A stretch of DNA of 64,000 nt from Sphingobacteriales bacterium (GTDB lineage Bacteria > Bacteroidota > Bacteroidia > UKL13-3). This document shows, piece by piece, positions 19,947 through 49,369 of the stretch. The notes under the pieces were generated by a model that worked only from the letters and a program-made list of their open reading frames with translations, did no database searches and had not been told where the DNA came from. The stretch spans positions 62,001-126,000 of the forward strand of contig JAJTFA010000001.1 of assembly GCA_021299635.1 (NCBI GenBank). Direction: 5' to 3'. Each line of letters starts with the position of its first letter. The stretch's first letter is position 1. The position numbers and the translations under genes were made by a program.

Positions 19947-20239
19947 CAGAAGTTATGAATCTGCTCCTGCAACTCTCCCAGGACTTTGAGGTAATCAGGG
20001 CTTATGTGTTGGCACTAAAGAAATCCAAGTTGGAGAACTTCAAAGAAACATGGATTGATGGCCAAGACGTAATGCACACCATGCACATTAGCAAGCGTAC
20101 CCTTCAATCCCTTCGGGATAACGGAACGCTTCCATACAGCCGCATCAATGGCAAGTTTTACTACAAGGTTGAGGACATAGAAAACCTGTTGCAATCCAAT
20201 TACTCACAAGCTAAATCAACAGGTGATGGAAATAAGTAA
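19943..20239 (+). CDS. Second small HTH protein
   Basis: 98 residues with an excisionase-type HTH (about 40-85, VMHTMHISKRTLQSL and NGKFYYKVEDIENLL). It is similar in layout to the 19647 product but too different to be a recent duplicate. It overlaps its upstream neighbour by 4 bp and the primase-like gene by 14 bp. Likely a DNA-binding partner or regulator of the replication module. Confidence 0.7.
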   Translation: MTEVMNLLLQLSQDFEVIRAYVLALKKSKLENFKETWIDGQDVMHTMHISKRTLQSLRDNGTLPYSRINGKFYYKVEDIENLLQSNYSQAKSTGDGNK

Positions 20240-21146: not shown

Positions 21147-21149
21147 TCA

Positions 21150-25677: not shown

Positions 25678-25738
25678 CCTATGCATATACACTGCACACA
25701 TAGTATTCATATTTGCTTCGTCAATCACAAAATAGTAT

Positions 25739-28198: not shown

Positions 28199-28200
28199 TT

Positions 28201-29382: not shown

Positions 29383-29392
29383 TAAAACAACT

Positions 29393-35100: not shown

Positions 35101-35296
35101 GACCTACAAGTTTATCCACAATGCTTTTCGGGATGGATATGTACAAACTACAGGTACTGGATTAGCAAAGATTCTTCCACCGGTTTCGAGGTTTACACCT
35201 ACTGGCGAAAGAACCCAAAAAAGAGAATCTGTTATTGAGAAAATTAAGGCATTCTTCAACAGGTTCTGGGATATTTCAGGTGGTATGTTGGAATAA
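32180..35296 (+). CDS. hsdR: Type I restriction endonuclease/translocase subunit HsdR
   Basis: 1038 residues. An N-terminal PD-(D/E)XK nuclease domain has D151 in NRYDVTILVNG and E165-L-K167 in HIELKKRG. An SF2 translocase follows, with Walker A TTGSGKT (324-330), DECH (424-427), and GFTGTPIF (about 449-456), and a C-terminal helical region for binding HsdM/S. All expected catalytic residues are present, so it should be active in ATP-dependent restriction. It overlaps hsdS by 8 bp; the next gene starts 52 bp later. Confidence 0.95.
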   Translation: MDKYYIVAENPESTVVAEYQTPYIRETAYQTEDQLEKAFIQLLQGQAYDYLTITSEAALTNNLRLQLQKLNNYIFSDKEWDHFFKSKIANPNSGIEEKTSLIQEDHIQILDCDDGTKKNIYLLDKTNIHNNQLQVINQYEVADGQRPNRYDVTILVNGLPLVHIELKKRGVDIKEAFNQINRYNRESFWSGSGLFEYVQLFVISNGTYTKYYSNTTRFSHIKEQTQRAAANKKRTSNSFEFTSWWADANNRPITDLMDFGRTFFAKHTLLNILCKYCVFISDKLLLAMRPYQIVATERILGRINVANNYKSYGSVDAGGYIWHTTGSGKTLTSFKTAQLASKLPFINKVLFVVDRKDLDYQTMKEYDKFEKGAANSNTNTSILKKQLSDPKANIIITTIQKLSILIKKEKNHLAFNQPIVIIFDECHRSQFGDMHKAITKAFKKYFLFGFTGTPIFAINASSSNKPDLKTTEQAFGQKLHTYTIVDAINDKNVLPFRIDYIRTMKEQEEIKDEKVWDIDREKALAAPQRVSNVVNYILEHFDQKTKRNSKPYSFTSLKNIYEVVSAKDRNKIEEVKQKIRLTGFNSIFAVSSIDFAKLYYNEFKTQQSSLPELQRLKVATIFSFGVNDDDEDGLPDENSEGTDGLSVSDRDFLEKAISDYNQIFKTNYDTSTEKFQNYYKDVSLRMKNREIDLLIVVNMFLTGFDATTLNTLWVDKNLRLHGLLQAYSRTNRILNSVKTFGNIVCFRNLEKATNESIALFGDKEAGGIVLLKTFDEYYNGYKDGEKTYPGYVSLINELTAKFPVGEQIIGEQNQKAFIRLYGSILKAKNILTTFDEFAGREILSERDVQDYHSMYINLYHEFRNRNTGDAENVNDDIVFEMELIKQVEINIDYILELIRKYHEGHLRDKEIIISINKAIDSSVELRNKKDLIEKFIQSLTPGSKVTDDWESFVEQKKLEELDQIIVEEELDKEETYKFIHNAFRDGYVQTTGTGLAKILPPVSRFTPTGERTQKRESVIEKIKAFFNRFWDISGGMLE

Positions 35297-35348
35297 CTTT
35301 TCAAAGGCAAACCAACCTGAACATTTAATAATGAAATAAAAAACAGAT

Positions 35349-36260
35349 ATGGCACTATACATAAATCACACCGGCAAACTCAAGGAGGTAAAAGAAAAGC
35401 CCTTCAAATTGGAAAAAGACATACAGAAAGTGTTTGAAGCCAATCTGTATGATATTATGGGGTTGGAATTGGTGAAGAGTGAGTTTACCATCAAAAACAA
35501 GCGTATAGATACGTTGGCTTATGATACACAGGCTTCCGCCTTCATTATTATTGAGTACAAGCGGGACAAGAATATCAGTGTGGTGGATCAGGGTTTTACC
35601 TACCTGAGTCTGATGCTGGAAAACAAAGCTGATTTTATTGTAGAGTATAACGAAAGTCTGAAACGCAACCTGAAACGGGAGGATGTAGATTGGAGCCAAA
35701 CAAGGGTTGCATTTGTATCTACCAATTTTACCGACAACCAGGTGCAGGCAACAAACTTCAAAGACATTGCCATTGAATTATGGGAGGTAAAACAGTTTGA
35801 GAATGATACCATCATGATCAATCCTGTCAAGAAATCAAATGCAGCCGAAAGTATCAAGCCATTAACCCAGAATAAGGAAGCACTTAAAAAGGTAACCGAA
35901 GAAATTAAGGTGTACACAGAGGAAGAACATCTGACGAAAACCACCGAAGCCATTGCCGAATTGTATGAGAAATTCAGGCAGGGAATATTGCAGTTGGCTG
36001 ATGAAATTGAGATCAAGCCCAAGAAGATGGAAATTGGTTTCAGAAAAGACAGTAAAGTGTTTGCAGATATATGTATCCTGAAAAACTCCCTGAAAATATG
36101 GGTTAACTTAAAGAAGGGAAAATTAGATGACCCCAAGCAGCTGGCAGAAGATGTATCAGAAAAAGGGCATTGGGGCAATGGCGATTATCAAATTCAGGTG
36201 GATACAGATAAAGACCTGGAGTATATCATGAGCTTGATTAAACAATCTATAAAACAATAA
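35349..36260 (+). CDS. PD-(D/E)XK nuclease-like protein with C-terminal DUF5655-like domain
   Basis: 303 residues. The N-terminal half has a nuclease-like core: KRIDTLAYD (Asp about 54) and FIIIEYKRDKN (E-x-K about 69-71), the spacing of the D...ExK catalytic motif. The C-terminal part (about 200-300, KKMEIGFRKDSKVFADICI to NLKKGKLDDPKQLAEDVS) resembles DUF5655. Such proteins are often found beside type I R-M genes in Bacteroidota and may be accessory nucleases. It lies 15 bp upstream of the Argonaute gene, making it a possible effector for that non-catalytic protein. Activity is inferred. Confidence 0.75.
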   Translation: MALYINHTGKLKEVKEKPFKLEKDIQKVFEANLYDIMGLELVKSEFTIKNKRIDTLAYDTQASAFIIIEYKRDKNISVVDQGFTYLSLMLENKADFIVEYNESLKRNLKREDVDWSQTRVAFVSTNFTDNQVQATNFKDIAIELWEVKQFENDTIMINPVKKSNAAESIKPLTQNKEALKKVTEEIKVYTEEEHLTKTTEAIAELYEKFRQGILQLADEIEIKPKKMEIGFRKDSKVFADICILKNSLKIWVNLKKGKLDDPKQLAEDVSEKGHWGNGDYQIQVDTDKDLEYIMSLIKQSIKQ

Positions 36261-36275
36261 TGAAAACGGTCGAAT

Positions 36276-38336
36276 ATGCAAGAACAAAACCTATTCTTCA
36301 ACATTCTCACTTTTCACTGGCCAAAGCAGCCGGTTACTTTTTATTTTCACGAAGAAGAACAGGATAAGTTTCCACGTATTCACAGGTCATTATTCCCGAA
36401 ACAAATAGCCGACATTTTCCCGCAGGTAGCTGCAAATCCGGCCAAAGAGTTTATATCATGTGCCTTCACAGGTGAAACCGAGGGCTTCACACCGTTGGAT
36501 ATAGATTTCAAAACGGACAATCCTGACCTCATCAAGCGTTTTTACAACAAGCAGATTGGTTACTACTTCCGTAAAGTCAGGGAGAAGATTGTAAAGGTCG
36601 GTTTCATCAAAGAGAATCAAATTTGGTTGCCAGTACCCAAGGAATCAAATGCACAATACAGCGTGTATGATAAATATACCCTCAAGGTCCAGCTTTGCAC
36701 TGTATCAGGTTTTCCTGAGATTCACCTGTCTTATGATGGCAAGTCAAGAGTGAGCAAAAAAAGCATTGCCGTACTGATACAAGACATTGCCCCCGAAAAC
36801 TTTAATTGGGTACTGTATGAGAACCAGCTTTGGAAGTATGAAACGCTGGACAAGAAAGAAGATATTGATTACAATAAGGCTTACCCTGTTTTAGGGAGGA
36901 GATTAAAAACTGCTATGGGCTTTCCTGCGGAAGCCCCGCCACGTCACAACAGGTACACCGAATATCTCAGGAACATCGAAAAATTCTATAAGGACTATTT
37001 AGACACCGATTCGTTCCGGGAGTTTATACCACTGCACACCACAGGATTATTGCCCGTAAACACTACAAGGTTAAACTACACTTCTCCCGATAGCAACAAG
37101 TTGGCATTTGGCACGGGTCAGGATATTGTGCCGTTTAACGGAGTGAAAACCTATGGTCCATTCAAAAAAGCCCCATACAATAAGGTGCATTTGTTTTTTA
37201 TCGTCCATCGTGATGATATAGAAACGGCCAAAAGATTGAAAACCTATTTCCAGTCAGGGCTGAAATTCTTCAAAGGCTTATTCGATTTCTCCAAAGTGCT
37301 GTTTCACACCAGTGAAGGATTCAGCATAGCCTTTACTGACAAAGAGAATCCCGTAGAGGAGATTGAACAGAAGTTATCTCAGCGTACCATCGACCCCGAT
37401 GTGAAATACATTGCCATTTACATTACCCCATACAACAAGTACGAAGCCGACCTGCAGAAGAGAGAAATTTATTACAAAGTGAAAGAACTGTTACTGAAGC
37501 GAAGAATTACTTCTCAATGCATAGAGGCAAATAAGGTAATGGAGCAAGGCGAAAACTATGTGTACAGCTTGCCAAACATTGCTGTCGCAATATTGGCAAA
37601 GTTAGACGGCATTCCGTGGCGTTTGAATACGCCAATCAGGAATGAATTGATTGTAGGCGTAGGAGCTTTTAAACACATAGCAACAGATGTACAATACATT
37701 GGCTCAGCCTTCAGTTTCAACAACACAGGCGGATTCAATCGGTTTGAGTACTTCATGAAGCATGAAGTGGATGTATTGGCCGGTTCTATTTCCAGGGCCA
37801 TCAGAGATTATGCAACAGTCAACAACAGCCCCGACAGGCTAATCATTCATTTCTACAAAACCATGAATGAGAAGGAGCTTGAACCCATTGAAAAGGCTTT
37901 GGCTGATTTAGGGCTGGATATACCGGTTTTTGTAGTCACCATCAACAAAACAGAATCCGAAGACATCGTTTTATTTGACCGTGGTTGGGCTGATTTAATG
38001 CCCATGAGTGGCACGTATGTGCATATAGGAGAGAACAGGTATTTGCTTTGCAACAATACCCGTTACTCAGCCGCTGGCTTCAATAAGAATGATGGCTTCC
38101 CCTTCCCGATCAAATTAAAAATTGACTGCACCGACAAAACACAATTAACAGAAACCAAAGTGGTAAAAGAACTCATAGACCAGGTATATCAATTCAGCCG
38201 CATGTACTGGAAATCAGTGCGGCAGCAAAACCTTCCGGTAACCATCAAATACCCCGAAATGGTGGCCCAGATAGCCCCCCATTTTGATGGCGATGAAATA
38301 CCACAGTACGGCAAGGATAATCTTTGGTTTTTGTAA
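36276..38336 (+). CDS. Prokaryotic Argonaute-like protein with degraded PIWI active site
   Basis: 686 residues. The C-terminal half looks like MID-PIWI: YKVKELLLKRRITSQCI (about 400-416) resembles the MID 5'-guide pocket, and NIAVAILAKLDGIPWRL (434-450) is a classic PIWI segment. The catalytic tetrad is not preserved: ELIVGVGAF (457-465) has Gly463 where active Argonautes have the first Asp, and RLIIHFYKT (521-529) lacks the next Asp. The N-terminal half (about 1-300) may hold an N domain and a reduced or absent PAZ. It should bind guide and target but not cut. Neighbours are the DUF5655 nuclease-like gene (15 bp upstream) and the GHKL ATPase gene (27 bp downstream), which are potential effectors. 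Confidence 0.8.
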   Translation: MQEQNLFFNILTFHWPKQPVTFYFHEEEQDKFPRIHRSLFPKQIADIFPQVAANPAKEFISCAFTGETEGFTPLDIDFKTDNPDLIKRFYNKQIGYYFRKVREKIVKVGFIKENQIWLPVPKESNAQYSVYDKYTLKVQLCTVSGFPEIHLSYDGKSRVSKKSIAVLIQDIAPENFNWVLYENQLWKYETLDKKEDIDYNKAYPVLGRRLKTAMGFPAEAPPRHNRYTEYLRNIEKFYKDYLDTDSFREFIPLHTTGLLPVNTTRLNYTSPDSNKLAFGTGQDIVPFNGVKTYGPFKKAPYNKVHLFFIVHRDDIETAKRLKTYFQSGLKFFKGLFDFSKVLFHTSEGFSIAFTDKENPVEEIEQKLSQRTIDPDVKYIAIYITPYNKYEADLQKREIYYKVKELLLKRRITSQCIEANKVMEQGENYVYSLPNIAVAILAKLDGIPWRLNTPIRNELIVGVGAFKHIATDVQYIGSAFSFNNTGGFNRFEYFMKHEVDVLAGSISRAIRDYATVNNSPDRLIIHFYKTMNEKELEPIEKALADLGLDIPVFVVTINKTESEDIVLFDRGWADLMPMSGTYVHIGENRYLLCNNTRYSAAGFNKNDGFPFPIKLKIDCTDKTQLTETKVVKELIDQVYQFSRMYWKSVRQQNLPVTIKYPEMVAQIAPHFDGDEIPQYGKDNLWFL

Positions 38337-38363
38337 TTAGTAAAATCTAAAGCTGAATTTGAA

Positions 38364-41300
38364 ATGAATGCTAAGCAGAGAATAGAAGCCTTCTTAAAGG
38401 AAAACAATATAAAGGGCAACCGATTTATAGGTCGCTGCATATTAACAGAAAGGGGTAATCTCATCCTTGGCGATATAATATCCAAAGATGGTCACGTACA
38501 ACTTCTTAAAGCAAATGGTGATAGAATTACCATTAATGCAACTAATTCCACATTTGAGTTTTTAGAAGGTAAGTTTTACGAGTTCAGCGTTTATATACCT
38601 GCACCTAATGCCAATGGAAAAAGTATTGTGGTGCTTGATCTTCAATTTAACTTACCATCAGAGTCTGACATCAATTCAAAGGATATTATTATAAAAGCAA
38701 AAAGGGAGTCACAAAGCAAGCTTTCTCTTGCGGATTTTTTATTGAGAAGCAATTTGTCAAATAATCGCTTTTATGGCAGATGTGTTCAGTCAGAAAGTGG
38801 GCAAAAAATGCTAAATGATATAATATCAAAAAATGAGGGTAATTTATTGTTGCGGGATGATGGAGATAGGTTATCAATTTACATTAGCAATATAGATTTC
38901 GATTTTGAAGCTGACCGATATTACGAGTTCTCAATAAGAGTATTTCATAAGGGAGTTAATAGGGACGAGATTATTTCAATAGAAATGAACGAAAATCCCC
39001 CCGTTAAGTTAGATATTAATCCATACAAAGAAATAACCCGGTTAAGATATGAAAGGTTAGATAATCCAGAAGCAAATCGAATGATTGCACATTTGATGCG
39101 TGAAATCGGGAAGGGCCTCTATTCGTCAAAACAACGAATGATATTTGAATTACTTCAAAATGCTGATGATACTCCTGCAGGTGATATAGTAAGTTTTCAT
39201 ATAGATGCATATAACGATTATTTTTTAGTGATGCATAACGGAGTTCCGTTTAATCAGGATGATGTTGAGGCAATTACAAGTGCAGCAGAAAGTACAAAGC
39301 GGAACGACAAAAAGAAGACAGGCTATAAAGGGATTGGCTTTAAATCTGTATTTACGGATAGTGAAGAAGTAATTATTAAATCTGGAGGTTTTCTTTTCAC
39401 TTTTAAAAGGAATCATACCGCTTACAATAATTTTGACACATTCTACTTTGGCAAGAAACGGTATCAGGAATATCCTGCTTTGTTAGAAGAAGACAAATTG
39501 AAATATGCAAAGCAGCGTAGAACCTTTAATGGTAATACTGACATACCCTGGCAGTTAATACCAATATGGTTAGAGGAACTGCCACGTGAACTCAACGAAT
39601 CAAGACTTGCAAAGTATAATAACAATGTTGGGTTTGCCATTAAGTTTGGAAGAGAGAAAGTTCAGGATTACTTGGAAGCGGTTAACTACTTTGTGGAAAA
39701 ACCTCATTTCATGCTTTTCCTCAGGCATGTAAATCTCTTCAAATCTTTTAAGAATGCGGTTACTGTTCGTAAGTCAGGCGAAGAAATTGTGACAATTGAA
39801 AAGATTACACTCAATGGCGAAAATCTTAAATTAATTTATTACAAGCATTTAATTGATGATATTCCTGTAAACGACAATGCCCTTTCAGAAGAAGGAATCG
39901 CCATTTACAAAAAGGAAAAAGTGAATGAATATGGGGAAGTATCACACTACTTCAGTTCGGATGAAGAAGGTAAACAGGTAATTGAATCTATACCTCCGAA
40001 ATTAGCTGCATTTGAAATGACATCAATTTCTTTCGCTGCTCCCATTATAAATGGAAATATTTCATGTGAACCGGCATATCTAACGGGCAAAGCTTTTTCA
40101 AGTTTCTATACTTACCTTCCCATGAAGGAAACACGGATTCAGCTGCCGTTCTTAGTCAATGCTGACTTTGTGCCATCCTCAAACAGAGAAGAACTTCAAG
40201 GGGATAATCAATGGAATGAGTATGTTATTTCTAAAATTGCATTTATCCATATTCGCTTTCTTCGTCAAATAGCAAATCAATCAATCGAATCTGGTCGTTT
40301 TGAGCCTGAGTACCTTTCCCTGCTTTTGAGTAAATTGTTGGAAGATGATTCCTCTATACAATTACTCATTGGGAAGTATAATGACGTATATGCTCAGTCT
40401 TTACAGGTTGTCCCCTTTGTAATATCAGATAAAGAAACCCTAATTACAATTTCGGAGGTAATTCTTGATGTTACTGGCATCTCTGATGTACTCGGAAGCA
40501 ATTTATTTTATCAGATTGCCGCAACGGAAAAGCATCTTCCCCATACTTCAATCAATGCAAAATATTTGAATTATGCTTATCTGCAAATTGATAAATATTC
40601 GTCCATCAATCTTATTGCTGATTTATGTGAAGAAGACAATTTGGAAGTACTAAAGCAGGAGTTATTAGCTTTAGAAAGCAAAAGGTATTTAAGCTTTGTA
40701 AAGTGGTTAAATGAATTTTGCCAACTGTATGTTGAGGATTCCGAATGGGTATTATCCTTCCCTTTTATTGTAGTTGATGATATATGTTTATCATTCAATG
40801 ACATACTCACAGTGGACGATATTTTTATCCGTTCTTATCGTACCAGACCGATTGAAAATTTATTAGCTAAGTTGGGTTTTAAGTTATCATCTTTTTACGT
40901 TGATGACTACAAATATTTGTTCGAGAAAAGTTGGCATATAGACTCTTATTTACACAAGGATATTAAGTTGTACGAACGATTAGCATCAAATGCTAACCTT
41001 TCACTACTTAGTCCAACAGAAAAGGCAAGTCTCATCTCATTTATTGAATCTTTAAAAGGCATTGGAGAAGTTAAGTTTGCCAATACCTTACCTCTATTCA
41101 ATACCCAGGCTGAACAAGTTGGTTTAAAGCCTCTTGCAAGTCTTATTACCAATAAGTGTGAAGGGCTTCCGAAATGGCTATTGAAATTTGTAATAAATGA
41201 GGAGGAAGAAAATGCATTATCTCAGGAATTTAGAAATTACCTGATTGATGAATCTAATATTCTTGAACTGCTTTTTTGTAATTCAGTATTGTTTGAAGAA

Positions 41301-44096
41301 ATAACCAATGGTTTGAGTTCAACTGATATTGAATCATTTTATGACTATGTTCTCAAACTTCATAGCGTACTTCCGGCAGATAAAGAACTTTCATACACAG
41401 GAATACCTTGGTTGTACGTACCTGCTTTACAGTTATTCCAATTGCCATCAGCTGTATATTGTCCGGATAGCTTATTGAAGTTGACAACGGAAAAATATCA
41501 GGCCATTTGCCCTGTAATTGAAGGCTTAACAAACGAATACACGGCTCATTCCATCTCTTTACCCCTTATTGAGAAGTTTTCTTTAGGATGTAAGAAAGGG
41601 CCAATTGCAAAGCTCATTGCAAAATCATCGAAACATTCTATCGAACAGTCAAATGATTTTCTTGATTGGGCTTCCACAAACGGAGATAATTCTCTTTTGG
41701 AGTTACTACAATTTCAAAAAGATGATGCTGAAATAGCGTTTAATCATGTTGCCAGCTGTAAGACGTATTATACAAGTGACACCGAATTAATTTCTTTAAT
41801 AGAAGTTAGCCCAATTGGTAAAAGAACCCTTTACTTATTGCCATCTGAACTTTACGATAATACCAGGTCAAAGATAGGTTTAATAGAAGGTGAACAGTTA
41901 ATCAACCACTTACTTGAAATTGGCTTCGCCACATTGTCATTTGTGAAGCATGTTCGAAAAGTTAAGAATGAAGAAACAGGCAGGCTTTTTGTTCAAAAGT
42001 TAGGAAGTATTGATTTATCTTCTGAAATAGTCTACAATAAGGAGAGTTTTGAACATTTACTATTTGAATTGATTATTGATTTGGGGAAAGAAGATGATAA
42101 GTATTTTGATTCGTTAATCTCTAAAATCACAATTGATGGGCATGGTCTTTCAAAGAAAAATATTTCAGATGAAGTTGTGTTTCGTTTTGCTGCTACGGAT
42201 ACAATAGCTGAGAGGCGTTATGTTTTGAAGTTATCTGAAATTCTACCTTCTTACAAGGATGAAACCGCTGCATTAACAAAGGTTATTGGAAACTTTGTCG
42301 ACATAAAAAATACCGGGTCGTTAAGAAAGGTTTTTAAAACATCTCAGAAGAGAACAGAGGATATTTTCAATGAGCTTCATTCAATACAGCTCGATTGTTT
42401 ATCGCCTCAACAAGTAATGTTCTTGTTATTGTACCAGGAAGACAAGCCAAAATTGGATTTCAAAAAGGGTAAGCCTGATTTCAGTGATTATTATTTTGAA
42501 ACGAATAGGACTGAATACGAAACGCAGTGTATGGATTTTATTTCGTTGCTATTTGCTCATAAGTACCCCTACTTTAAAGGGCGGTTTCATTTTAAAGATC
42601 TGACATTTCAAAATACAATCTTGGATAGTAATTATGCTATAGAAAAAGAGTTGGCTCCTGCATGGCTTCAGAAATGGATGAACGATGAGGAAAAGGAATC
42701 GAAGTTGTCATTTCTAAATCTCTTAGGTTTAAATAAAGCCGATAGTCCTATTATGTTGCTCCGTAAAGGGCTTGCTGAAAGAAATAGAGAAATTTTTCAA
42801 AAGGGCTTGGTGAATTTGGATAATCCCATTTTGTTGGGTAATACAATGCAATGGTTGCTAAGATTACAGACTGAAAAGGAGACTAAGTACGATAAAATAT
42901 TCCTCAAAGATTTATATGCTAAACTTGAAGAAAAGAAGCTGCTGGGTATAGATGTTCCTTTGGCAGTGATGGTTGATTTAAATCCTGAATTTTATAAATT
43001 GGTAGTTAAGACTGAGGATAGCATTTTCCATACTTTGAATGCTGGTTGGGGGGATTATTCGGCAGAGATATTTGCCTCAATTATTGAATCGGGCGGTCAT
43101 ATTATTGATGATGTATTGCCCGAGAGCCTACACAAGTTTGTGAAATCAACTAATGAGAAAACTCTTATTGCAACGGATGGTGAAAAGATATTAGGAAATA
43201 GCACCCTCTTTTCAGAGCCGTATTATACGAAATGGCAGCATAGTGCTCAGTATCCTATTTACATCTATAATGGTGAATTATTGCCTAATAAGCTAACGTA
43301 TAGCAAAATATTCACAAAGTGCATTTTTCAAGGCAAGGTTTCCGTTGTGAGTAATACATACTACGTCACATCTGATACAGCAGATGAACTGCCTTATCCG
43401 TTGAAAGGGATTCTTCCAAATGATATTTATACTGATCTAATTAGAGTAAAGGATGAGTATCAGAATAAAAAACACAAGGAACAATATGAAGTAAGTTATT
43501 CAGATGAAGAAGCGAATGCACTCAAACGATTATTTGGTGATGAAATACCTCGTGGTTTTCATAAAGACCTGAATCTTGCTTCTCTGATTAAAGGCTTAAT
43601 TTATTTGTCTAATAGCGGATATGATGTTTCGGAAGCTGAGGAGAAATTGAAGAATACACACGAATATTCACAATTATATCCGGTTTATAAGGCAGGTGTT
43701 GATAGAGAAATTGTTAATGCCCTTAAAATTAAATGCAGGTCAGCTAAGTCTGGTTTGCTATACCTCCGTGCATCAAGTTGGCAGGAATTGGAGAACTCAA
43801 ATACCTATTTGTATATACTTACAGGCAATGATAATACTGATTGCCGATTCTGTACTACCAGAGAAGAGGTCATACGAGATTCTAAAGCTGATTACAGGGT
43901 TTTAAGAATCGAGGCAGGGAATGGGGTATCAGATATTGATGATATTATTGAAGGCAAGTTTGATCCTGAAAATCTTTGGTTGATTATTCGTATGTCAGAC
44001 AAAAAGGAGTATAAAGCAATTTTCGAGAAAATCAGAAACAGTGAATCCAGTGATACAATCTGGAATGTAAATATTGGTAACGAATCTGAAGATTAA
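38364..44096 (+). CDS. Giant sacsin-like GHKL ATPase (1910 residues)
   Basis: Two copies of a small N-terminal domain (about 17-79 and 132-194; both contain NRF.GRC, DIISK, GDR and YYEFS/FYEFS) precede an HSP90-like ATPase. Its N-box is FELLQNADD (261-269), its G1 region is HNGVPF (291-296) and its glycine loop is GYKGIGFKSVF (320-330). The remaining 1500 residues are helical and charged with no domain I can name. The ATPase start matches sacsin and related proteins in R-M-type conflict systems. Only 3 bp separate it from the SF1 helicase gene, and 27 bp from the Argonaute gene upstream. It is probably an ATP-driven clamp or scaffold, but its role is unknown. Confidence 0.8.
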   Translation: MNAKQRIEAFLKENNIKGNRFIGRCILTERGNLILGDIISKDGHVQLLKANGDRITINATNSTFEFLEGKFYEFSVYIPAPNANGKSIVVLDLQFNLPSESDINSKDIIIKAKRESQSKLSLADFLLRSNLSNNRFYGRCVQSESGQKMLNDIISKNEGNLLLRDDGDRLSIYISNIDFDFEADRYYEFSIRVFHKGVNRDEIISIEMNENPPVKLDINPYKEITRLRYERLDNPEANRMIAHLMREIGKGLYSSKQRMIFELLQNADDTPAGDIVSFHIDAYNDYFLVMHNGVPFNQDDVEAITSAAESTKRNDKKKTGYKGIGFKSVFTDSEEVIIKSGGFLFTFKRNHTAYNNFDTFYFGKKRYQEYPALLEEDKLKYAKQRRTFNGNTDIPWQLIPIWLEELPRELNESRLAKYNNNVGFAIKFGREKVQDYLEAVNYFVEKPHFMLFLRHVNLFKSFKNAVTVRKSGEEIVTIEKITLNGENLKLIYYKHLIDDIPVNDNALSEEGIAIYKKEKVNEYGEVSHYFSSDEEGKQVIESIPPKLAAFEMTSISFAAPIINGNISCEPAYLTGKAFSSFYTYLPMKETRIQLPFLVNADFVPSSNREELQGDNQWNEYVISKIAFIHIRFLRQIANQSIESGRFEPEYLSLLLSKLLEDDSSIQLLIGKYNDVYAQSLQVVPFVISDKETLITISEVILDVTGISDVLGSNLFYQIAATEKHLPHTSINAKYLNYAYLQIDKYSSINLIADLCEEDNLEVLKQELLALESKRYLSFVKWLNEFCQLYVEDSEWVLSFPFIVVDDICLSFNDILTVDDIFIRSYRTRPIENLLAKLGFKLSSFYVDDYKYLFEKSWHIDSYLHKDIKLYERLASNANLSLLSPTEKASLISFIESLKGIGEVKFANTLPLFNTQAEQVGLKPLASLITNKCEGLPKWLLKFVINEEEENALSQEFRNYLIDESNILELLFCNSVLFEEITNGLSSTDIESFYDYVLKLHSVLPADKELSYTGIPWLYVPALQLFQLPSAVYCPDSLLKLTTEKYQAICPVIEGLTNEYTAHSISLPLIEKFSLGCKKGPIAKLIAKSSKHSIEQSNDFLDWASTNGDNSLLELLQFQKDDAEIAFNHVASCKTYYTSDTELISLIEVSPIGKRTLYLLPSELYDNTRSKIGLIEGEQLINHLLEIGFATLSFVKHVRKVKNEETGRLFVQKLGSIDLSSEIVYNKESFEHLLFELIIDLGKEDDKYFDSLISKITIDGHGLSKKNISDEVVFRFAATDTIAERRYVLKLSEILPSYKDETAALTKVIGNFVDIKNTGSLRKVFKTSQKRTEDIFNELHSIQLDCLSPQQVMFLLLYQEDKPKLDFKKGKPDFSDYYFETNRTEYETQCMDFISLLFAHKYPYFKGRFHFKDLTFQNTILDSNYAIEKELAPAWLQKWMNDEEKESKLSFLNLLGLNKADSPIMLLRKGLAERNREIFQKGLVNLDNPILLGNTMQWLLRLQTEKETKYDKIFLKDLYAKLEEKKLLGIDVPLAVMVDLNPEFYKLVVKTEDSIFHTLNAGWGDYSAEIFASIIESGGHIIDDVLPESLHKFVKSTNEKTLIATDGEKILGNSTLFSEPYYTKWQHSAQYPIYIYNGELLPNKLTYSKIFTKCIFQGKVSVVSNTYYVTSDTADELPYPLKGILPNDIYTDLIRVKDEYQNKKHKEQYEVSYSDEEANALKRLFGDEIPRGFHKDLNLASLIKGLIYLSNSGYDVSEAEEKLKNTHEYSQLYPVYKAGVDREIVNALKIKCRSAKSGLLYLRASSWQELENSNTYLYILTGNDNTDCRFCTTREEVIRDSKADYRVLRIEAGNGVSDIDDIIEGKFDPENLWLIIRMSDKKEYKAIFEKIRNSESSDTIWNVNIGNESED

Positions 44097-44099
44097 TAA

Positions 44100-45881
44100 A
44101 TGCAAATACCAAATCAGCAGCATATTGAGTTTTACGAATGGCAGATAAATGTCATTGAAGAAGAATGGGAGAGATACGCCAACACTTCAATGAAGTTACT
44201 CATTCAGGAAAAGCGTCTGTTTGTTGGCCGCATTTGGGGGCTGCAGGAGTCACAGGGTAATGTTGTACTACGGTTTAAAGCAGGTTTAGTTCCAAGAATG
44301 AAACAACCCTATATTCTCTGCATGGTAGGGGCTGAGGCTCCAGCCAATTCTTCTGATTGGGATTTCACTTACTTACAATTCAGAATTTCTGACAATCCAA
44401 GGCTAAGTGGTTTCAATACCGAAATAAAGACGATAAACTACCTCAAATCCGATGATGCAAAATGGTCTTATATTCTGGTGAATGGATTTGAGCAGAAATT
44501 ACTCAGCCAGATTAAAGATAATTATTTGAGCAAGGGCCATCATCCTCTTGTAGTAGTGGCCGAGTCTGACCCGCCTATTGACTATTTGATAAATCTGAAA
44601 GACTTTGTACTAAAAAATCCTTTTGATGGCATTCTCAATTTAGATGTAACAGTCAATGAACAAGAATGGTCACCCAAATCATTAAATAATAGTAAATCAG
44701 TAACTACAACAGTCATTGATTTATTGGATAGGCACAAAACCATTTTAATTCAAGGCCCTCCAGGTACTGGAAAATCACATTTAGCGGCTGAAATCTGCGA
44801 ACAGTATCTTTCAAAAGAGTTGTCTATATGCGTAACAGCCCTGACCAATAAGGCTTTGATGGAAATAGCAGATAAAGATGGATTAAACGCACCGCTTGAC
44901 CAGGGAAAAGTGTCCAAAACGAATTTGTCGTCAGATGAATTTAAGCTTATTCCCAAATTAAAACCGGTCGATGATTTAGCCCCGATACAAGGTGAACTTT
45001 TACTATCTACCTATTATAAGTTATCTCAAAAGCAAGCCGAATTAGCAGCCGGTAAAAAACGTTTTGACTTATTGATTATTGAGGAGGCTTCACAAGCTTA
45101 TTTGGCTACCATTGCAATGTTTAGTTCTATCGCAAAAAAGTTATTGATTATTGGCGACCATAAACAGCTTACCCCAGTTGTAAAGCAAAAAGAGCAGTCT
45201 TATAAAATACACCCTGAGATAGATGGTGTAATTAATGGTCTTGAAACATTTGCTTTTAATAACAATGACATTTCTAATCGCTTGACTTTTACACGTAGGT
45301 TAACATCAGAGGCTGCAAATATTACTGCTGTTTATTATCAGAATACTTTGAAAAGTATTTCAAAAGACGAAGGAAATACAAAGTTCACTTCCCGGTATTT
45401 TGATATGTTTCACTCAAATGGTGGTATTTCAATTGCTAAGTTGCCAGCTTCTATGCAAGGTTTCAATGAAAAGGATGTAATCCGTTTTATTTGCCAAATT
45501 GGTCATGAAATACTCAGCAGCAATAACAAAATTGAGATTGCTCTTTTATCGCCCTATATAAAAGTCGAATCCGCCTTATACGAACAGTACAGCCGTTTGT
45601 CTTCTGATTACAGCAGGGTAACTTTAAATACAATTCATAAAATTCAAGGTCTTACAACGGATGTAACTATTCTATATCTACCATTGAATAATCCATCCTT
45701 TGATCTGAATGCTAACCTTTTTAACGTTGCAACGAGCCGGGCTAAAAAGGGGACATTGATTGTAACTTACAAACAAATTGAGTTGCTGACTGGAGCATCT
45801 CCGGAAACTATGACGTTTATTCATAGATGTCAGGATGTTTCACCCCAATTCGATTGGGCATTTAAAAAATTCCTTGATTAA
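44100..45881 (+). CDS. Superfamily 1 (UPF1/Dna2-like) helicase
   Basis: 593 residues. The first 200 contain no motif I recognise. SF1B helicase motifs follow: Walker A GPPGTGKS (219-226), Walker B LLIIEEASQ (324-332), motif III GDHKQLTPV (352-360), a TFTRRLTSEA region (397-405), motif V TLNTIHKIQG (508-517) and motif VI NVATSRAKKG (542-551). UPF1-like enzymes unwind RNA or DNA. No nuclease domain is seen. It lies 3 bp after the giant ATPase gene and is the last gene of the cassette, so the two probably work together. Confidence 0.88.
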   Translation: MQIPNQQHIEFYEWQINVIEEEWERYANTSMKLLIQEKRLFVGRIWGLQESQGNVVLRFKAGLVPRMKQPYILCMVGAEAPANSSDWDFTYLQFRISDNPRLSGFNTEIKTINYLKSDDAKWSYILVNGFEQKLLSQIKDNYLSKGHHPLVVVAESDPPIDYLINLKDFVLKNPFDGILNLDVTVNEQEWSPKSLNNSKSVTTTVIDLLDRHKTILIQGPPGTGKSHLAAEICEQYLSKELSICVTALTNKALMEIADKDGLNAPLDQGKVSKTNLSSDEFKLIPKLKPVDDLAPIQGELLLSTYYKLSQKQAELAAGKKRFDLLIIEEASQAYLATIAMFSSIAKKLLIIGDHKQLTPVVKQKEQSYKIHPEIDGVINGLETFAFNNNDISNRLTFTRRLTSEAANITAVYYQNTLKSISKDEGNTKFTSRYFDMFHSNGGISIAKLPASMQGFNEKDVIRFICQIGHEILSSNNKIEIALLSPYIKVESALYEQYSRLSSDYSRVTLNTIHKIQGLTTDVTILYLPLNNPSFDLNANLFNVATSRAKKGTLIVTYKQIELLTGASPETMTFIHRCQDVSPQFDWAFKKFLD

Positions 45882-45979
45882 GACAGATTCCAGTCGCTTT
45901 ATTAGATGAAATACAAAAGCAAGGTGTTCGTTCCTCACGAATTTATTGAACCCACCCGGCCAACGCACAAGCACGGCTA

Positions 45980-46019
45980 ATGCAGTGGCTAACCCACAAT
46001 GCCAACCCTTCCACTGCAT
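45980..46019. repeat. Hairpin 1 of the 46-kb cluster
   Basis: ATGCAGTGG (45980-45988) and CCACTGCAT (46011-46019) pair perfectly over 9 bp around a 22-nt loop. The word GCAGTGGCT recurs in hairpin 3. Confidence 0.6.
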
Positions 46020-46051
46020 CTGTGGTGTTGCCGCCATTTTTAACTGTCATA

Positions 46052-46149
46052 CTTTTTGTGGCTATGCTCCCCACGCTTTTGGCACATTGCCTGTTCCGCT
46101 TCGCTACACAGCCAAAGAGCCAAGCCAACCCAAGCATAGCAACAAAAAG
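46052..46149. repeat. Hairpin 2 of the 46-kb cluster
   Basis: CTTTTTGTGGCTATGCT (46052-46068) pairs with AGCATAGCAACAAAAAG (46133-46149) with one mismatch in 17. The loop contains CGCTTCGCTACACAGCC, closely matching CGCTTCGCACAGCC in hairpin 3. Confidence 0.65.
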
Positions 46150-46211
46150 ACGCTTCACTCCAACCACCACCACCGTTCCGCTTATGCCAGTATAAAAATT
46201 GGCGGAAGCAT

Positions 46212-46316
46212 ACTTAAACATAATGCGGTCTTATGTGTTCGCTTCGCACAGCCACCCCACGCTTATGCAAGCATCCCAACGCAGTGGCTGTCACATAAGT
46301 CGCCATTATGTTAAGT
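46212..46316. repeat. Hairpin 3: 105-bp attC-like palindrome
   Basis: The outer arms ACTTAAaC (46212-46219) and GTTAAGT (46310-46316) match the integron attC R'' and R' consensus (RYYYAAC/GTTRRRY), except for one extra A in the left arm. Inside, CATAATG/CATTATG, CTTATGTG/CACATAAG and ACAGCCAC/GTGGCTGT pair with bulges. Length, outer boxes and bulged stem resemble attC sites. No integron integrase is in the window. Confidence 0.5.
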
Positions 46317-46414
46317 AGCCAACACCATAGCACTTTTTATCAAAAGTGTAGCCGTGCTTTTTGCCAACGCACCCCACCCGAAGAACCCCTACACCCCGCC
46401 ACCCTTTCAGCGGT

Positions 46415-46828
46415 GCAGAAAAAAATAAAGCATGATTTGTTTTATGGCCATGTGCTTGCGGTCAGTTCATTCTCTTCGCCTCCATTTCGTTCAGGCGTTC
46501 CGTTCATTCCGCTTCTCTTCATTCACTACACCATCCTTCACTTCATTTCGTCTACGTTCATTTCACTCACCTCAGCACCGCACGGCAAAAGCAATTCCTT
46601 CTCTGCGTTTCGCAAAGCAACCGCACTGGCTTTCCGTGTCATGGCATTTGCTTAACCCCCGCTGCAATGGCTTTTGTCTTTGGATAATTTATAAAAGCCC
46701 ACAATGCTTCTAAGCAAATTGCTCATGCCACTCCAAGCCGCCAACCCGGTTTGCTTCACTCCGTTGCGTCATTGCATTTGCCCTTCACCCCCCGCACATT
46801 TGAAAGCGGTATGCTTTATTTTTTCTGC
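46415..46828. repeat. Long-range inverted repeat flanking 377 bp
   Basis: 46415-46433 (gcagaaaaaaataaagcat) and 46811-46828 (atgctttattttttctgc) are reverse complements except for one extra A. The enclosed sequence has no credible gene. It may be the remnant of a small element, or chance in an A/T-run context. Confidence 0.35.
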
Positions 46829-46854
46829 GACATGTTTACCCCATTGCCGACCCA

Positions 46855-47070
46855 CTAAAATCCGTATCCTTCAAACCAAGTATCTACCTCCTGAATGGAT
46901 CTGAGTAATACTTCATCCTGAATTGGAAATCCTTCAATCTGATTGGTGATTTTGATTTGATGACCTTCATTGATTTGGTCTTGCATTGTCCTTTTTAATT
47001 CCTCAAAAATGTGAGGTTGTCCGTTCTCCAATGGAGTTAGGATTGATTGTTTGTTGTAATTGTAAACCAT
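46855..47070 (-). CDS. Small hypothetical protein
   Basis: 71 residues from ATG 47070: MVYNYNKQSILTPLENGQ, then a helical HIFEELKRTMQDQINEGHQ and an acidic, aromatic tail (WFEGYGF). The amino-acid composition is balanced, unlike the spurious frames beside it, and an AT-rich upstream stretch (47071-47160) could serve as promoter. I recognise no family. It is transcribed against the cassette genes to its left. Confidence 0.5.
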   Translation of the reverse strand: MVYNYNKQSILTPLENGQPHIFEELKRTMQDQINEGHQIKITNQIEGFPIQDEVLLRSIQEVDTWFEGYGF

Positions 47071-47178
47071 AGATATAATGTTGTTTATTATAAATATGTC
47101 GGAATTGAGGAAAAATCACTTTTTATCAAAAAATATTTTTGAGGCCCACTTTTAAAAAATAAAAAAGGCAGCAAAGTT

Positions 47179-47298
47179 AGGGCGGCACACACAAGCCCGC
47201 GCTGATAAAAAACCAAAAGACTACGGCATAAACACAAGGCCAACGCACAAGGCTATCATTTATTCCGTTTCCTTTTGGTTTTTTGCCCTTGCCGCCCT
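47179..47298. repeat. 120-bp two-part inverted repeat in a gene-free gap
   Basis: AGGGCGGCA (47179-47187) pairs with TGCCGCCCT (47290-47298), and AAAAAACCAAAAG (47207-47219) pairs with CTTTTGGTTTTTT (47272-47284), both perfectly. The 331-bp gap 47071-47401 also contains pyrimidine-rich runs (47308-47352) and GAAGCGTAGCGGAGC just before the next gene. The structure could be a small RNA, a transfer or replication origin, or an attenuator. Nothing else is recognisable in the gap. Confidence 0.5.
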
Positions 47299-47401
47299 GT
47301 CAAGAGGCTTTCTTTTTTCTTTTTTTTTCCGGTTTTTTTTCTGTTTTCTTTTAAAAATGTGTGCGAAGCGTAGCGGAGCAAAATTTTAAATCCCTACGTG
47401 T

Positions 47402-47827
47402 ATGCAGTCAGCAAAAATTCAAACGTACAGCCCCAAAAATGAAGTTTCGCAGCACTCATTTTTCATTCTCTGTAAAGGCTTAAATAGTGGTAAGCCTCTG
47501 GAGCAACCAACCGCCAACTGTTTTGTAATGTCATGCGAAAGCGAAGAAGAAATGAAGCGTTACTATTGGCTTTGTTTCGGTTTATGGCAGTCTAAAGCCT
47601 TTCACCCTCACTTGTGCGGCTCAGTCATTCCATTTTTACGCATCAATGATTTTAGAAAGATTTTTGCAGAGGCAGCAGCCCAGGCAATCGGCAACGAACC
47701 AAAGGAGCAAAAAATGGTTTCCGACCTTCAAAAGTTGCAGCAGCTTGAAAAGCTATACAAGGAAAACTTGCTTCTTATAGCTGATGCAAAAAGGGCAGTA
47801 TTTTACAAGTTCATGCGGAGGCGTTAA
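47402..47827 (+). CDS. DUF6943-like protein
   Basis: 141 residues. It has FFILCKGLNSGKPLEQPTANCF (about 20-41, shortened: CKGLNSGKP core), the YYWLCFGLWQSKAFHPHLCGSVIPFLR block (about 59-85) and a C-terminal coiled coil (LQKLQQLEKLYKENLLL). This fits DUF6943, a small Bacteroidota family common on mobile elements and of unknown role. The start codon is at 47402 just after the 120-bp inverted-repeat region. Confidence 0.7.
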   Translation: MQSAKIQTYSPKNEVSQHSFFILCKGLNSGKPLEQPTANCFVMSCESEEEMKRYYWLCFGLWQSKAFHPHLCGSVIPFLRINDFRKIFAEAAAQAIGNEPKEQKMVSDLQKLQQLEKLYKENLLLIADAKRAVFYKFMRRR

Positions 47828-47976: not shown

Positions 47977-48783
47977 TTAGAAAATCTCCTGAATCTTCAA
48001 CGCATTACCTGAGTTGAACAGGTAATAGTTGGAACCAACTTGCTGATAGAATTCGATACCGATACACTGCAACACACTTGCATCAGCCGTAAGGGTTGGA
48101 GAACCCGGCAGGGTAGCAGTTACAACAGTTGACGTTGCAACAGGTGAGAACAAATCAATGTAGCCAGAATACTGAACGTCTGAAAGTTCATTATTGGCTG
48201 CGTCAATCGGTTCGTAAACTCCGGTGGTGTCATTGTACGCAAAATCCGATACACAAGCCAGAGCATGGATTAAGCGAAAATGAGTAGCACCAGCAGGAGC
48301 ATTCACCAAGTTTGCAGGGTTGAAAGCTGGAACGGTTAAAGTACCGCTGTCACGACTTGGAGTGTGGGACAGAGTGAACGGAGCAACAAACACACCTTCC
48401 AAGCTCACGTTTTTGTCAAACGCAAATCCGTTCAGGTACTGGCTTTGCTGCGAAATCAGAATTGCACGGTAACCCCTTGCTTCAGTCTGATCTTCCAGAT
48501 TGATTTTTTTCATTATCGCAGTGAGGCGACCTGTCATTTGAGGGTCACTCATTTGCTTAATGATTTGAGAGAGGGCAACCCGAACAGATTTACCGGCTGT
48601 TGCACAGCCTCCGAACTCGTTCATGTTTTCACGAGTACGTTCAAATTCGGGAGCAGTTAAGATTTGGTCACCATTGGGACCGCCTACAAGTCCTGCGAAG
48701 TCGCCTTGCAGTCCTTTGATTTTGAAATGTCGTACACCGCCCATTGTGCCGGAGTAACGAACGAGACCAGTTTGTCTTGCCAT
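47977..48783 (-). CDS. Unknown 268-residue island protein
   Basis: Starts MARQTGLVRYSGTMGGVRHFKIKG. Glycine-rich N-terminal segments (GLVGGPNGDQI, FGGCATAGKS) lead to a helical VRVALSQIIKQMSDPQ region and a beta-rich C-terminal half (VTATLPGSPTLTADASVLQCIGIEFYQQ). There is no signal peptide or membrane helix. I do not recognise a domain. The combination suggests an oligomeric or structural protein rather than an enzyme, but that is only impression. It diverges from the thermonuclease gene across 91 bp. Confidence 0.7.
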   Translation of the reverse strand: MARQTGLVRYSGTMGGVRHFKIKGLQGDFAGLVGGPNGDQILTAPEFERTRENMNEFGGCATAGKSVRVALSQIIKQMSDPQMTGRLTAIMKKINLEDQTEARGYRAILISQQSQYLNGFAFDKNVSLEGVFVAPFTLSHTPSRDSGTLTVPAFNPANLVNAPAGATHFRLIHALACVSDFAYNDTTGVYEPIDAANNELSDVQYSGYIDLFSPVATSTVVTATLPGSPTLTADASVLQCIGIEFYQQVGSNYYLFNSGNALKIQEIF

Positions 48784-48874: not shown

Positions 48875-49369
48875 ATGGTGCAATTCAAAGCATACGGACA
48901 AGCAATAATCAAAACACACCTCAAAATCACTAAAGTGGTTGATGGGGATGGTCTGTTTGTAGTGAATCCATTCAATAAACAGGAAGAAGAAATTCGCTTC
49001 CTGGGCATTGATGCACCCGAAATAAGACGGTCTAAAAAGCTGCAACAGGATGAAAGAGAATCACACTTACCCGGCCAGCTTCTGTTATTGTTGGGTAAGA
49101 AGTCAAAAGATTTTCTGAACTCAATTGCACCAGTTGGAACGTCTGTTACGATCCAACTTGAAAAGCCTCACAGCATTGATTCTTTTGGCCGTACACTGGC
49201 TTATGTGTTTCTTCCTGATGGTACATGCTTAAATGAATTGATGATTAAGGAGGGCTTTGCAAAGCCTTACAGCAGGTATTATTGTGAAGCGTTAGCAGAT
49301 TTTCAGCAAATCAATATATTTGCAAAGTCGAATCGAAAAGGACTGTACCAAACAGTCAACGACTTTTAA
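48875..49369 (+). CDS. Thermonuclease (SNase)-like protein
   Basis: 164-residue staphylococcal-nuclease fold. Typical features are VVDGDGLFV (about 24-32), IRFLGIDAPE (Arg and Asp of the active site, about 46-55), the SFGRTLAYVFLPDGTCLNELMIKEG block (about 107-131) and the closing NRKGLYQ. The Asp/Arg/Glu set appears complete. No signal peptide is visible, so the enzyme is probably intracellular, unlike secreted SNases. It is the last gene before attR. Confidence 0.87.
   Translation: MVQFKAYGQAIIKTHLKITKVVDGDGLFVVNPFNKQEEEIRFLGIDAPEIRRSKKLQQDERESHLPGQLLLLLGKKSKDFLNSIAPVGTSVTIQLEKPHSIDSFGRTLAYVFLPDGTCLNELMIKEGFAKPYSRYYCEALADFQQINIFAKSNRKGLYQTVNDF

What the first reader, a model, noticed from the sequence alone, without database searches (positions are those of the whole stretch)
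45980..46316. Cluster of related large hairpins, one attC-like
Three hairpins share words (GCAGTGGCT, CGCTTCGC.ACAGCC). The 105-bp one has RYYYAAC/GTTRRRY-like outer boxes and bulged inner stems, as in integron attC sites. The region is C-rich and gene-free, between the cassette and the right part. It could be a captured cassette scar, a repeat family or structured RNA.
Basis: partly seen in the sequence, partly recalled or inferred. Interest (0 to 1): 0.52.

Follow-up and report, generated by a model that had tools for sequence, protein, structure and literature searches.

The report
Folded Xer site in defence islands
The hairpins are one large DNA structure, conserved across the phylum Bacteroidota in mobile islands that carry defence genes, and the hairpin that looked like an integron site is instead a folded copy of the chromosome's own Xer (dif) recombination site, similar to the one the cholera phage uses to insert as single-stranded DNA.

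Summary
The hairpins are real but are pieces of one nested structure, SS1 (45969-46359; z -10.2). Two more structured blocks, SS2 and SS3, follow. SS1 belongs to the backbone of a 32.8-kb island at the 3' end of mnmE, on the border with its defence cargo. I found 69 copies across Bacteroidota; where enough sequence was held, 45 of 48 are followed by DUF6943 and 34 of 35 by a 268-aa gene. An alignment of 41 copies gives 96 pairs, 53 with compensatory double changes. G-U pairs make up 1.3% of pairs, against 12.3% in RNase P of the same genomes, so the structure probably acts as DNA. The 'attC-like' hairpin fails the attC test (0 of 40). It is instead an inverted pair of dif-like XerC/XerD sites that folds into one site with a bubble, as in CTXphi attP(+). 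61 of 64 copies keep it, with a 5- or 7-nt centre in all 61, never the 6 nt of host dif. Similar hairpins occur in other elements, three of which encode their own XerC/D-like recombinase pair. Best reading: a single-strand-specific Xer recombination site inside a structured single-stranded-DNA locus. Recombination itself is inferred, not shown.

The parts
16715..16731 (+). left attachment repeat TTTTGTATCGGAAAGTA at the 3' end of mnmE
   Evidence: shared 16-mers at 16715/49474 and 16716/49475; mnmE 15344-16732 by Pfam MnmE_helical
16949..17323 (+). excisionase-like protein (124 aa)
   Evidence: TIGR01764 excise, 2.5e-8; phrog_66
17320..18426 (+). island tyrosine integrase (Arm-DNA-bind_5, Phage_int_SAM_5, Phage_integrase)
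   Evidence: Pfam
20223..22901 (+). island replication genes: BT4734-like_N protein and PriCT_2/DUF3987 primase-helicase
   Evidence: Pfam; homologues upstream of SS1 in other genomes
23031..45881 (+). variable cargo: AbiEi, WYL regulator, type I R-M, DUF5655, Piwi (pAgo), Sacsin-like protein, SF1 helicase
   Evidence: Pfam; sequence shared with G168 begins at 45948
45969..46359 (+). SS1: nested multi-branched DNA structure, 96 conserved pairs
   Evidence: coordinates mapped from A1 columns
46156..46193 (+). largely unpaired conserved segment of SS1 (CACTCCAACCACCACCACCGTTCCGCTTATGCCAGTAT)
   Evidence: part of it was the search pattern, so its conservation in those copies is partly by construction; also present in blastn-found copies
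46213..46241 (-). hairpin F, 5' arm: inverted dif-like site (XerC arm - GACCGCA - XerD arm, read on the minus strand)
46288..46316 (+). hairpin F, 3' arm: dif-like site CTGTCACATAA gtcgcca TTATGTTAAGT
   Evidence: best dif-PWM hit of the window, 25.2 bits; next 13.7; best of six shuffles 17.6
46405..46838 (+). SS2: second conserved structure (outer stem 46414-46433/46811-46829)
   Evidence: 32-row alignment: 29 pairs, 19 with double change, 98.4% of cells paired against 87.2% shuffled
47155..47380 (+). SS3: third structured block, conserved in order in relatives
   Evidence: fold z -2.8; blastn matches in G412, G187, G407, G195, G210, G130
47402..47827 (+). DUF6943 protein (141 aa)
   Evidence: PF22105 1.3e-50; best structure matches are HsdS subunits, weak; follows SS1 in 45 of 48 copies
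47977..48783 (-). 268-aa protein of unknown function
   Evidence: no Pfam, PHROGs or NCBIfam match; present in 34 of 35 copies with at least 3.5 kb downstream
48875..49369 (+). SNase-like nuclease
   Evidence: PF00565
49474..49490 (+). right attachment repeat TTTTGTATCGGAAAGTA; homology with other islands ends here

Best explanation
SS1 is a conserved DNA secondary structure in the backbone of a family of Bacteroidota genomic islands (excisionase, tyrosine integrase, HTHs, primase-helicase, variable cargo, then SS1-SS2-SS3, DUF6943, 268-aa gene). Shown here: the structure, its selection at the DNA level, its fixed place, and that hairpin F consists of two inverted dif-like sites which, in one strand, pair into a single site with duplex XerD and XerC arms and an unpaired bubble. 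Inferred: the site is read by XerC/XerD (host or relatives) only when the island is single-stranded. As duplex its centre is 5 or 7 nt, not the 6 nt of dif, so it should not recombine with dif; folded, it offers a proper arm-bubble-arm substrate for one strand exchange, as CTXphi attP(+) does. The XerD-side triplet ACA is paired and the bubble lies on the XerC side, so I predict XerD starts, the reverse of CTXphi. SS1-SS3 would hold that strand in a defined shape and may also serve second-strand priming by the island's primase.
For: Fold z -10.2. 96 pairs, 96.6% of cells paired against 83.1% shuffled; covariation score 0.364 against 0.134 shuffled and at most 0.067 when slid. G-U 1.3% of pairs against 12.3% in RNase P of the same set of genomes. 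No TANNTTTG in SS1 on + (0 of 57, shuffled mean 5.2) and 1 of 57 on - (10.3). A dif PWM from 14 host dif sites scores the 3' arm 25.2 in the window and 31.6 of 32.3 in G130; 61 of 64 copies score 20 or more, centre 5 nt in 47 and 7 nt in 14. The 5' arm holds an ATAA-N5/7-TTATG site in 41 of 41 rows. Helices 11 and 12 of A1, the two Xer arms, are the most invariant: 7 of 9 and 4 of 6 pairs never vary. An independent pattern for 5-nt-centre sites hits 10 places in 9 of 295 genomes (control pattern 3); 8 of 10 have an inverted partner. Three further elements with such hairpins encode pairs of tyrosine recombinases; those of G062 and G187 match XerC/XerD models best.
Against: The window island sits at mnmE by its own integrase, so the Xer site is not its integration site, and I saw no island at dif. 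The XerC-side centre (TAACA, GAACA) matches dif centres (TTAATA, TTTATA) poorly, so a CTXphi-like XerC exchange is not supported. The inverted partner scores 15 or more in only 29 of 64 copies. Three of 64 copies lack the site (L134, L137, L142). Of 30 DUF6943 loci, a hairpin F-like motif was found in 10. G-U scarcity fits ssDNA but also a duplex cruciform, and the strand used is unknown. The SS1 set is less diverged (mean identity 0.71) than the RNase P set (0.59). No functional data.
Confidence: 0.6

Rival explanations
1. SS1-SS3 are a single-strand initiation, transfer or packaging locus, and hairpin F only binds Xer proteins or marks the strand, with no recombination.
For: The island carries a primase-helicase but no relaxase was seen among the genes scanned; SS2 and SS3 are conserved without Xer sites; + strand loops are G-poor (G 14.7%, C 33.7%) while paired columns are balanced.
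Against: It does not explain why both arms keep near-consensus XerC and XerD boxes and a non-6 centre, or why three other elements pair such hairpins with their own Xer-like recombinases.
Confidence: 0.2
2. A large structured non-coding RNA, in the manner of GOLLD or ROOL.
For: Ornate multi-branched fold, compensatory changes, found in mobile elements.
Against: G-U pairs 1.3% against 12.3% in RNase P; no conserved promoter-like motif upstream of or in SS1; in G424 and G429 the gene before SS1 points the other way; no Rfam match.
Confidence: 0.08
3. A duplex Xer site for dimer resolution of the excised, circular island.
For: The 3' arm is close to a full dif site (up to 31.6 of 32.3 bits).
Against: Centre 5 or 7 nt in 61 of 61 detected sites, with an inverted copy close by that pairs with it; a duplex resolution site needs neither.
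Confidence: 0.06
4. The compensatory changes come from quasi-palindrome correction by template switching, with no function.
For: Such correction yields Watson-Crick-only arms, as seen.
Against: The bubble of F, the unpaired segments, the order of blocks and the link to DUF6943 and the 268-aa gene (45 of 48, 34 of 35) are conserved too, and the two Xer arms are invariant while other helices vary.
Confidence: 0.04
5. An integron attC site or cassette scar.
For: Two-box arms with a bubble between them; GTTRRRY on the 3' arm in 28 of 40 rows.
Against: GTTRRRY on both arms in 0 of 40; the crossover GTT is missing in 12 of 40; better explained by dif arms.
Confidence: 0.02

Closest known systems
CTXphi attP(+) folded ssDNA site (PMC3089051, passages seen)
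   Same: Two dif-like sites in opposite orientation that pair in one strand into one Xer site with an imperfect centre; attP2 has a 7-nt centre TACGCCA before TTATGTTA, the window has GTCGCCA before TTATGTTA.
   Different: Here it lies in large islands that carry their own integrase and sit at mnmE, inside a 390-nt multi-branched structure; the centre is mostly 5 nt; the paired, dif-like side of the centre is the XerD side.
IMEX elements and Microviridae proviruses at dif in Bacteroidetes (PMC5357621, PMC3091885, passages seen)
   Same: Use of dif-like sites by mobile DNA; dif-like proviruses are already reported in Bacteroidetes, some with a second dif-like site.
   Different: Those integrate at dif and are small phages or IMEX; no island here was seen at dif.
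Integron attC
   Same: Folded single-strand site with two boxes and a bubble, at the edge of variable genes.
   Different: Box sequences are XerC/XerD-like; no GTTRRRY on both arms; a single site per island, no cassette array.
Frpo and ssi single-strand promoters of conjugative plasmids (PMC11541004, passages seen)
   Same: Large ssDNA folds in mobile DNA.
   Different: No promoter-like motif for this phylum in SS1.
SGI1-type islands at trmE/mnmE (PMC8409611, abstract start in a search listing only)
   Same: Islands at the 3' end of trmE/mnmE, called mobilizable there.
   Different: Different phylum and backbone genes; no relation tested.
GOLLD and ROOL RNAs (PMC12286853, abstract start in a search listing only)
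   Same: Large ornate folds.
   Different: SS1 shows a DNA-type pairing pattern and no Rfam match.

Membership tests
CTXphi-type folded Xer attachment site | two dif-like sites in opposite orientation within about 100 nt | tested here: met
   3' arm site in 61 of 64 copies, 5' arm site over 15 bits in 29 of 64, with 32-39 nt between them where both were scored; ATAA-N-TTATG on the 5' arm in 41 of 41 rows
CTXphi-type folded Xer attachment site | the two sites pair in one strand into a forked hairpin with arms and an imperfect centre | tested here: met
   only two of the four folds (window, L181) used stretches that show the whole stem clearly
CTXphi-type folded Xer attachment site | XerC-side centre homologous to host dif | tested here: not met
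   TAACA or GAACA against TTAATA or TTTATA; the XerD-side ACA is closer to ATA or ACA
CTXphi-type folded Xer attachment site | integration at dif | tested here: not met
   window island bounded by TTTTGTATCGGAAAGTA at mnmE; MnmE-like ORF next to the left end in G414, G416, G424 and G429, by eye
CTXphi-type folded Xer attachment site | XerC/XerD recombination of the single strand | not testable with these tools
   needs biochemistry or genetics
integron attC | RYYYAAC/GTTRRRY boxes on both arms | tested here: not met
   0 of 40 rows
integron attC | match to an attC covariance model | not testable with these tools
   no such model held; Rfam gave nothing
structured non-coding RNA | G-U pairs at RNA-like frequency | tested here: not met
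   1.3% against 12.3% in RNase P
structured non-coding RNA | transcript from its own promoter | tested here: inconclusive
   no conserved TANNTTTG with a -33 element; no expression data
single-strand promoter (Frpo-like) | promoter motif within the folded stem | tested here: not met
   TANNTTTG 0 of 57 (+) and 1 of 57 (-); the consensus is recalled

The most novel reading that the evidence does not exclude
A phylum-wide group of Bacteroidota mobile elements has a single-stranded life stage and uses folded Xer hairpins as a site that is live only as ssDNA: silent as duplex because its centre is not 6 nt, active when single-stranded, with XerD-first strand exchange, in some elements by the host's Xer proteins and in others by an element-borne XerC/D-like pair. 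SS1-SS3 and DUF6943 (HsdS-like DNA reader) would be the accessory machinery that folds and recognises the strand.
Probability: 0.3. Interest if true: 0.88.

Novelty: new variant of a known kind. Interest (0 to 1): 0.74.

Why it matters
Folded single-strand recombination sites are known mainly from integrons and from CTXphi-like phages. If right, a third setting exists: large, defence-carrying islands across Bacteroidota whose route of spread is unknown and which lack a recognised relaxase among the genes scanned here. It gives a concrete handle on how such islands move, ties the host's chromosome-dimer machinery to the spread of Argonaute and restriction-modification genes, and bears on how attC-like sites could arise from dif. 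The contrast in G-U pairing with RNase P is also a simple way to tell DNA structures from RNA structures in comparative data.

Tried and rejected
attC: rejected on box counts. RNA: tested with Rfam, a G-U control and a promoter scan. Single-strand promoter (Frpo-like): I first thought TTG-N20-TACTTTTTG in SS1 might be a promoter, but its spacing is one base off the consensus I recalled, and TANNTTTG is depleted. Word search GGCCAACGCACAAG: no overall enrichment over its control by count, yet it led to G168. Pattern ATTATGTTAAGTAGC within 1 mismatch hit 20 of 58 genomes, about as often as its control; later some of its hits proved to be host dif sites and other F-like hairpins. Plasmid and phage collections: no match to SS1 (window and L110 versions), DUF6943 or, in phages, the 268-aa protein. 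Structure search for the 268-aa protein: nothing convincing. A second Xer-like hit 2.45 kb upstream in L109 and L165 lies in shared cargo with no F-like fold there and was set aside. L139 and six other hits were dropped as not SS1.

Rows dropped before counts: 7 of 74 hits (L113, L117, L121, L129, L139, L147, L157); alignment A1 used 41 of 69 copies (full flanks, under 95% identity); the Xer scan used 64 of 69 (five lacked the 3' side); RNase P used 22 of 29 loci (7 lacked the anchor motif); SS2 used 32 of 38 non-redundant copies; the dif matrix used 14 sites that fitted a regular expression. The background was biased because L002-L024 had been fetched with the XerD-arm word, so repeats it without them; that second background still contained fetched SS1 loci (L068-L074), which give its 5- and 7-nt hits.

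Full report
WHAT IS THERE. The region after the helicase gene (44100-45881) holds no gene of the island and is C-rich. The hairpin with the attC look folds at z -5.6 as DNA. Folding the whole stretch shows that the three hairpins are arms of one nested structure: 45940-46380 gives -90.7 kcal/mol against -48.3 +/- 4.2 for shuffles, z -10.2, and the other strand z -9.6. I call it SS1 (45969-46359). A second structured block, SS2, covers 46405-46838, and a third, SS3, about 47155-47380. No Rfam family matches.

WHERE IT SITS. Upstream are defence-type genes: type I R-M, DUF5655, a Piwi (pAgo) protein, a Sacsin-like protein and an SF1 helicase. At the left lie an excisionase-like protein, a tyrosine integrase and a primase-helicase pair next to mnmE. 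The 17-bp repeat TTTTGTATCGGAAAGTA occurs at 16715 in the 3' end of mnmE and at 49474, where homology with other islands also stops. So the window holds a 32.8-kb island at mnmE. In G168, of another family, the shared sequence begins at 45948, just after the cargo, and runs to 49495 at 97.8% identity. SS1 is thus backbone, at the border of variable cargo. In four other islands read whole (G414, G416, G424, G429) the order is the same: an ORF that I read by eye as MnmE, a small zinc-finger protein, integrase, small genes, primase, cargo, SS1, DUF6943, 268-aa gene, and in three of them an SNase-like gene. In 20 named genomes a homologue of the primase was found in 15; by my comparison of coordinates 13 of the 20 have it 12-23 kb upstream of SS1 on the same strand, four of these checked by reading the sequence.

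HOW WIDESPREAD. SS1 plus SS2 (45948-46860) was found by blastn in 13 of 395 genomes of the class at E <= 0.001, with identities from 100% down to 68%; three of the 13 are short weak matches. The nearest 57 relatives had none. A pattern from the conserved unpaired segment found 74 stretches in genome contigs; 67 are SS1 by eye, nearly all titled as Bacteroidota. With the window and one IMG/VR contig that makes 69 copies. The motif used for that search is conserved in them by construction; the rest is not. DUF6943 follows in 45 of 48 copies that have 2 kb downstream, and the 268-aa gene in 34 of 35 that have 3.5 kb.

IT IS A SELECTED STRUCTURE. On 41 non-redundant copies RNAalifold finds 96 pairs, 53 with a change on both sides. 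96.6% of cells pair, against 83.1% in shuffles and at most 43.6% when slid; the covariation score is 0.364 against 0.134 and at most 0.067. One measure, the number of further pair types, does not exceed shuffles (89 against 89.9). SS2 behaves alike: 29 pairs, 19 with double change, 98.4% paired against 87.2% shuffled.

IT LOOKS LIKE DNA, NOT RNA. In SS1 the cells are 3710 Watson-Crick, 47 G-U and 18 A-C. RNase P RNA from the same set of genomes, handled the same way (22 of 29 loci), has 1365 Watson-Crick and 192 G-U, that is 12.3% against 1.3%. In the variable pairs of SS2, G-U is 2 of 582; over all its pairs 34 of 902. Unpaired columns of SS1 are poor in G on the + strand, 14.7% against 33.7% C, while paired columns are balanced, which would suit a + strand that must fold without misfolding; this is an inference. 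The phylum's promoter consensus TANNTTTG (recalled) is absent from SS1 on + (0 of 57) and nearly so on - (1 of 57). Just upstream of SS1 it occurs in 8 of 57 copies (shuffled mean 2.8), in no case with a -33 element.

THE 'attC' HAIRPIN IS A FOLDED Xer SITE. The 3' arm of hairpin F reads CTGTCACATAA gtcgcca TTATGTTAAGT in the window. A search for ATAA-N6-TTATGTWAA in 33 genomes gave candidate host dif sites; 14 of regular form supplied a matrix. The host's own dif, not in that matrix, is TTGCCTCATAA TTAATA TTATGTTAAAT. The F arm is the best site of the window at 25.2 bits (next 13.7; best of six shuffled windows 17.6); in G130 it is ATGTCCTATAA gaaca TTATGTTAAAT, 31.6 of at most 32.3. Of 64 copies with that side held, 61 have the site at 20 bits or more, with a centre of 5 nt in 47 and 7 nt in 14, never 6. 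The only 6-nt centre in A1 is L137, whose XerD box is broken. The 5' arm is an inverted second site, present as ATAA-N-TTATG in 41 of 41 rows but at 15 bits or more in only 29 of 64. The two arms pair, with a bubble in the centre. The two Xer boxes are the least variable helices of SS1 (7 of 9 and 4 of 6 pairs never vary). In CTXphi, attP1 and attP2 are likewise two dif-like sites in opposite orientation about 90 bp apart that fold into attP(+), attP2 having the 7-nt centre TACGCCA (PMC3089051, passages seen). attC is excluded by its boxes (0 of 40 on both arms).

BEYOND THIS ISLAND FAMILY. DUF6943 loci without blastn-detectable SS1 (L181, L183, L208) still keep hairpin F. A pattern for 5-nt-centre sites found 10 places in 9 of 295 genomes, its control 3; 8 of 10 have the inverted partner, and 6 of these 8 are outside the SS1 blast family. 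In G062 and in a second locus of G187 the hairpin stands beside two tandem tyrosine recombinases and a DnaG-type primase; their best NCBIfam matches are XerD and XerC models, below those models' cut-offs. G047 has two such hairpins and two tandem tyrosine recombinases, and one of its hairpins lies beside a stretch that I read as a tmRNA 3' end. So an F-like hairpin recurs with primase and recombinase genes.

MECHANISM. Shown: structure, DNA-type pairing, location, dif-like boxes, non-6 centre. Inferred: a single-stranded stage of the island; recognition of folded F by XerC/XerD; one strand exchange, XerD first, because the XerD-side triplet ACA (36 of 40 rows) is paired and close to the ATA or ACA of dif, while the bubble is on the XerC side. 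What the exchange is for is open: the island sits at mnmE, not at dif. Capture of an incoming strand, resolution of multimers during single-strand replication, or a checkpoint are all possible. DUF6943's best structural matches are HsdS DNA-recognition subunits (probability 0.93-0.97, but E 0.015-0.06), so it may read this DNA; that is a weak lead.

PRIOR WORK. Of the papers used I read passages of PMC3089051, PMC5357621, PMC3091885, PMC4792948 and PMC11541004; PMC8409611, PMC12286853, PMC4595007 and PMC3025954 were seen only in search listings. Searches listed nothing that I recognised as describing this structure or DUF6943; the library lacks most subscription papers.

Noticed in passing
window 36276-38336: A Piwi (pAgo) gene is common cargo: DNA matches to the window's gene in L040, L042, L067, L072, L118, L170 and L178, and an ORF cluster that appears to be pAgo upstream of SS1 in 10 of 69 loci.
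   Followed up: partly
window 47402-47827: DUF6943 (27 of 395 genomes) resembles half an HsdS target-recognition domain with a coiled coil (weak Foldseek hits); it may be a stand-alone DNA reader.
   Followed up: partly
window 47977-48783: A conserved 268-aa protein with no family and no clear fold match; another member of the family lies just outside the island in G429.
   Followed up: partly
L299 542-15370 (G062:C40): A 7.3-kb unit with two HTH genes, a DnaG-type primase, two XerC/D-like recombinases and hairpin F is tandemly duplicated at 99.5% identity, next to RHS-like ORFs.
   Followed up: partly
L302 8266-9308 (G047:C9): Two F-like hairpins about 1 kb apart, one next to what reads as a tmRNA 3' end.
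   Followed up: no
L134 (Pedobacter montanisoli): SS1 copy in which hairpin F has collapsed to a single Xer-like site with a 7-nt centre, as if the loop between the arms had been deleted.
   Followed up: no
A1 columns 400-470: The tip of hairpin F comes in two exchangeable versions (GTGTTCGCTTCGCACAGCC type and AGTACATTTT type) that are mixed among backgrounds, suggesting module swapping between copies.
   Followed up: no
L012 (G033:C44): A diverged SS1 in the window's own bacterial family keeps ATGCCAGTA and a 5-nt-centre Xer site but not the CCACCACC segment, so the family is wider than the searches here reached.
   Followed up: no
window 47207-47284: A 78-nt piece of SS3 recurs downstream of DUF6943 in several islands (for example L042 13683-13778, L112 2346-2423), so DUF6943 is often flanked by related hairpins.
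   Followed up: no
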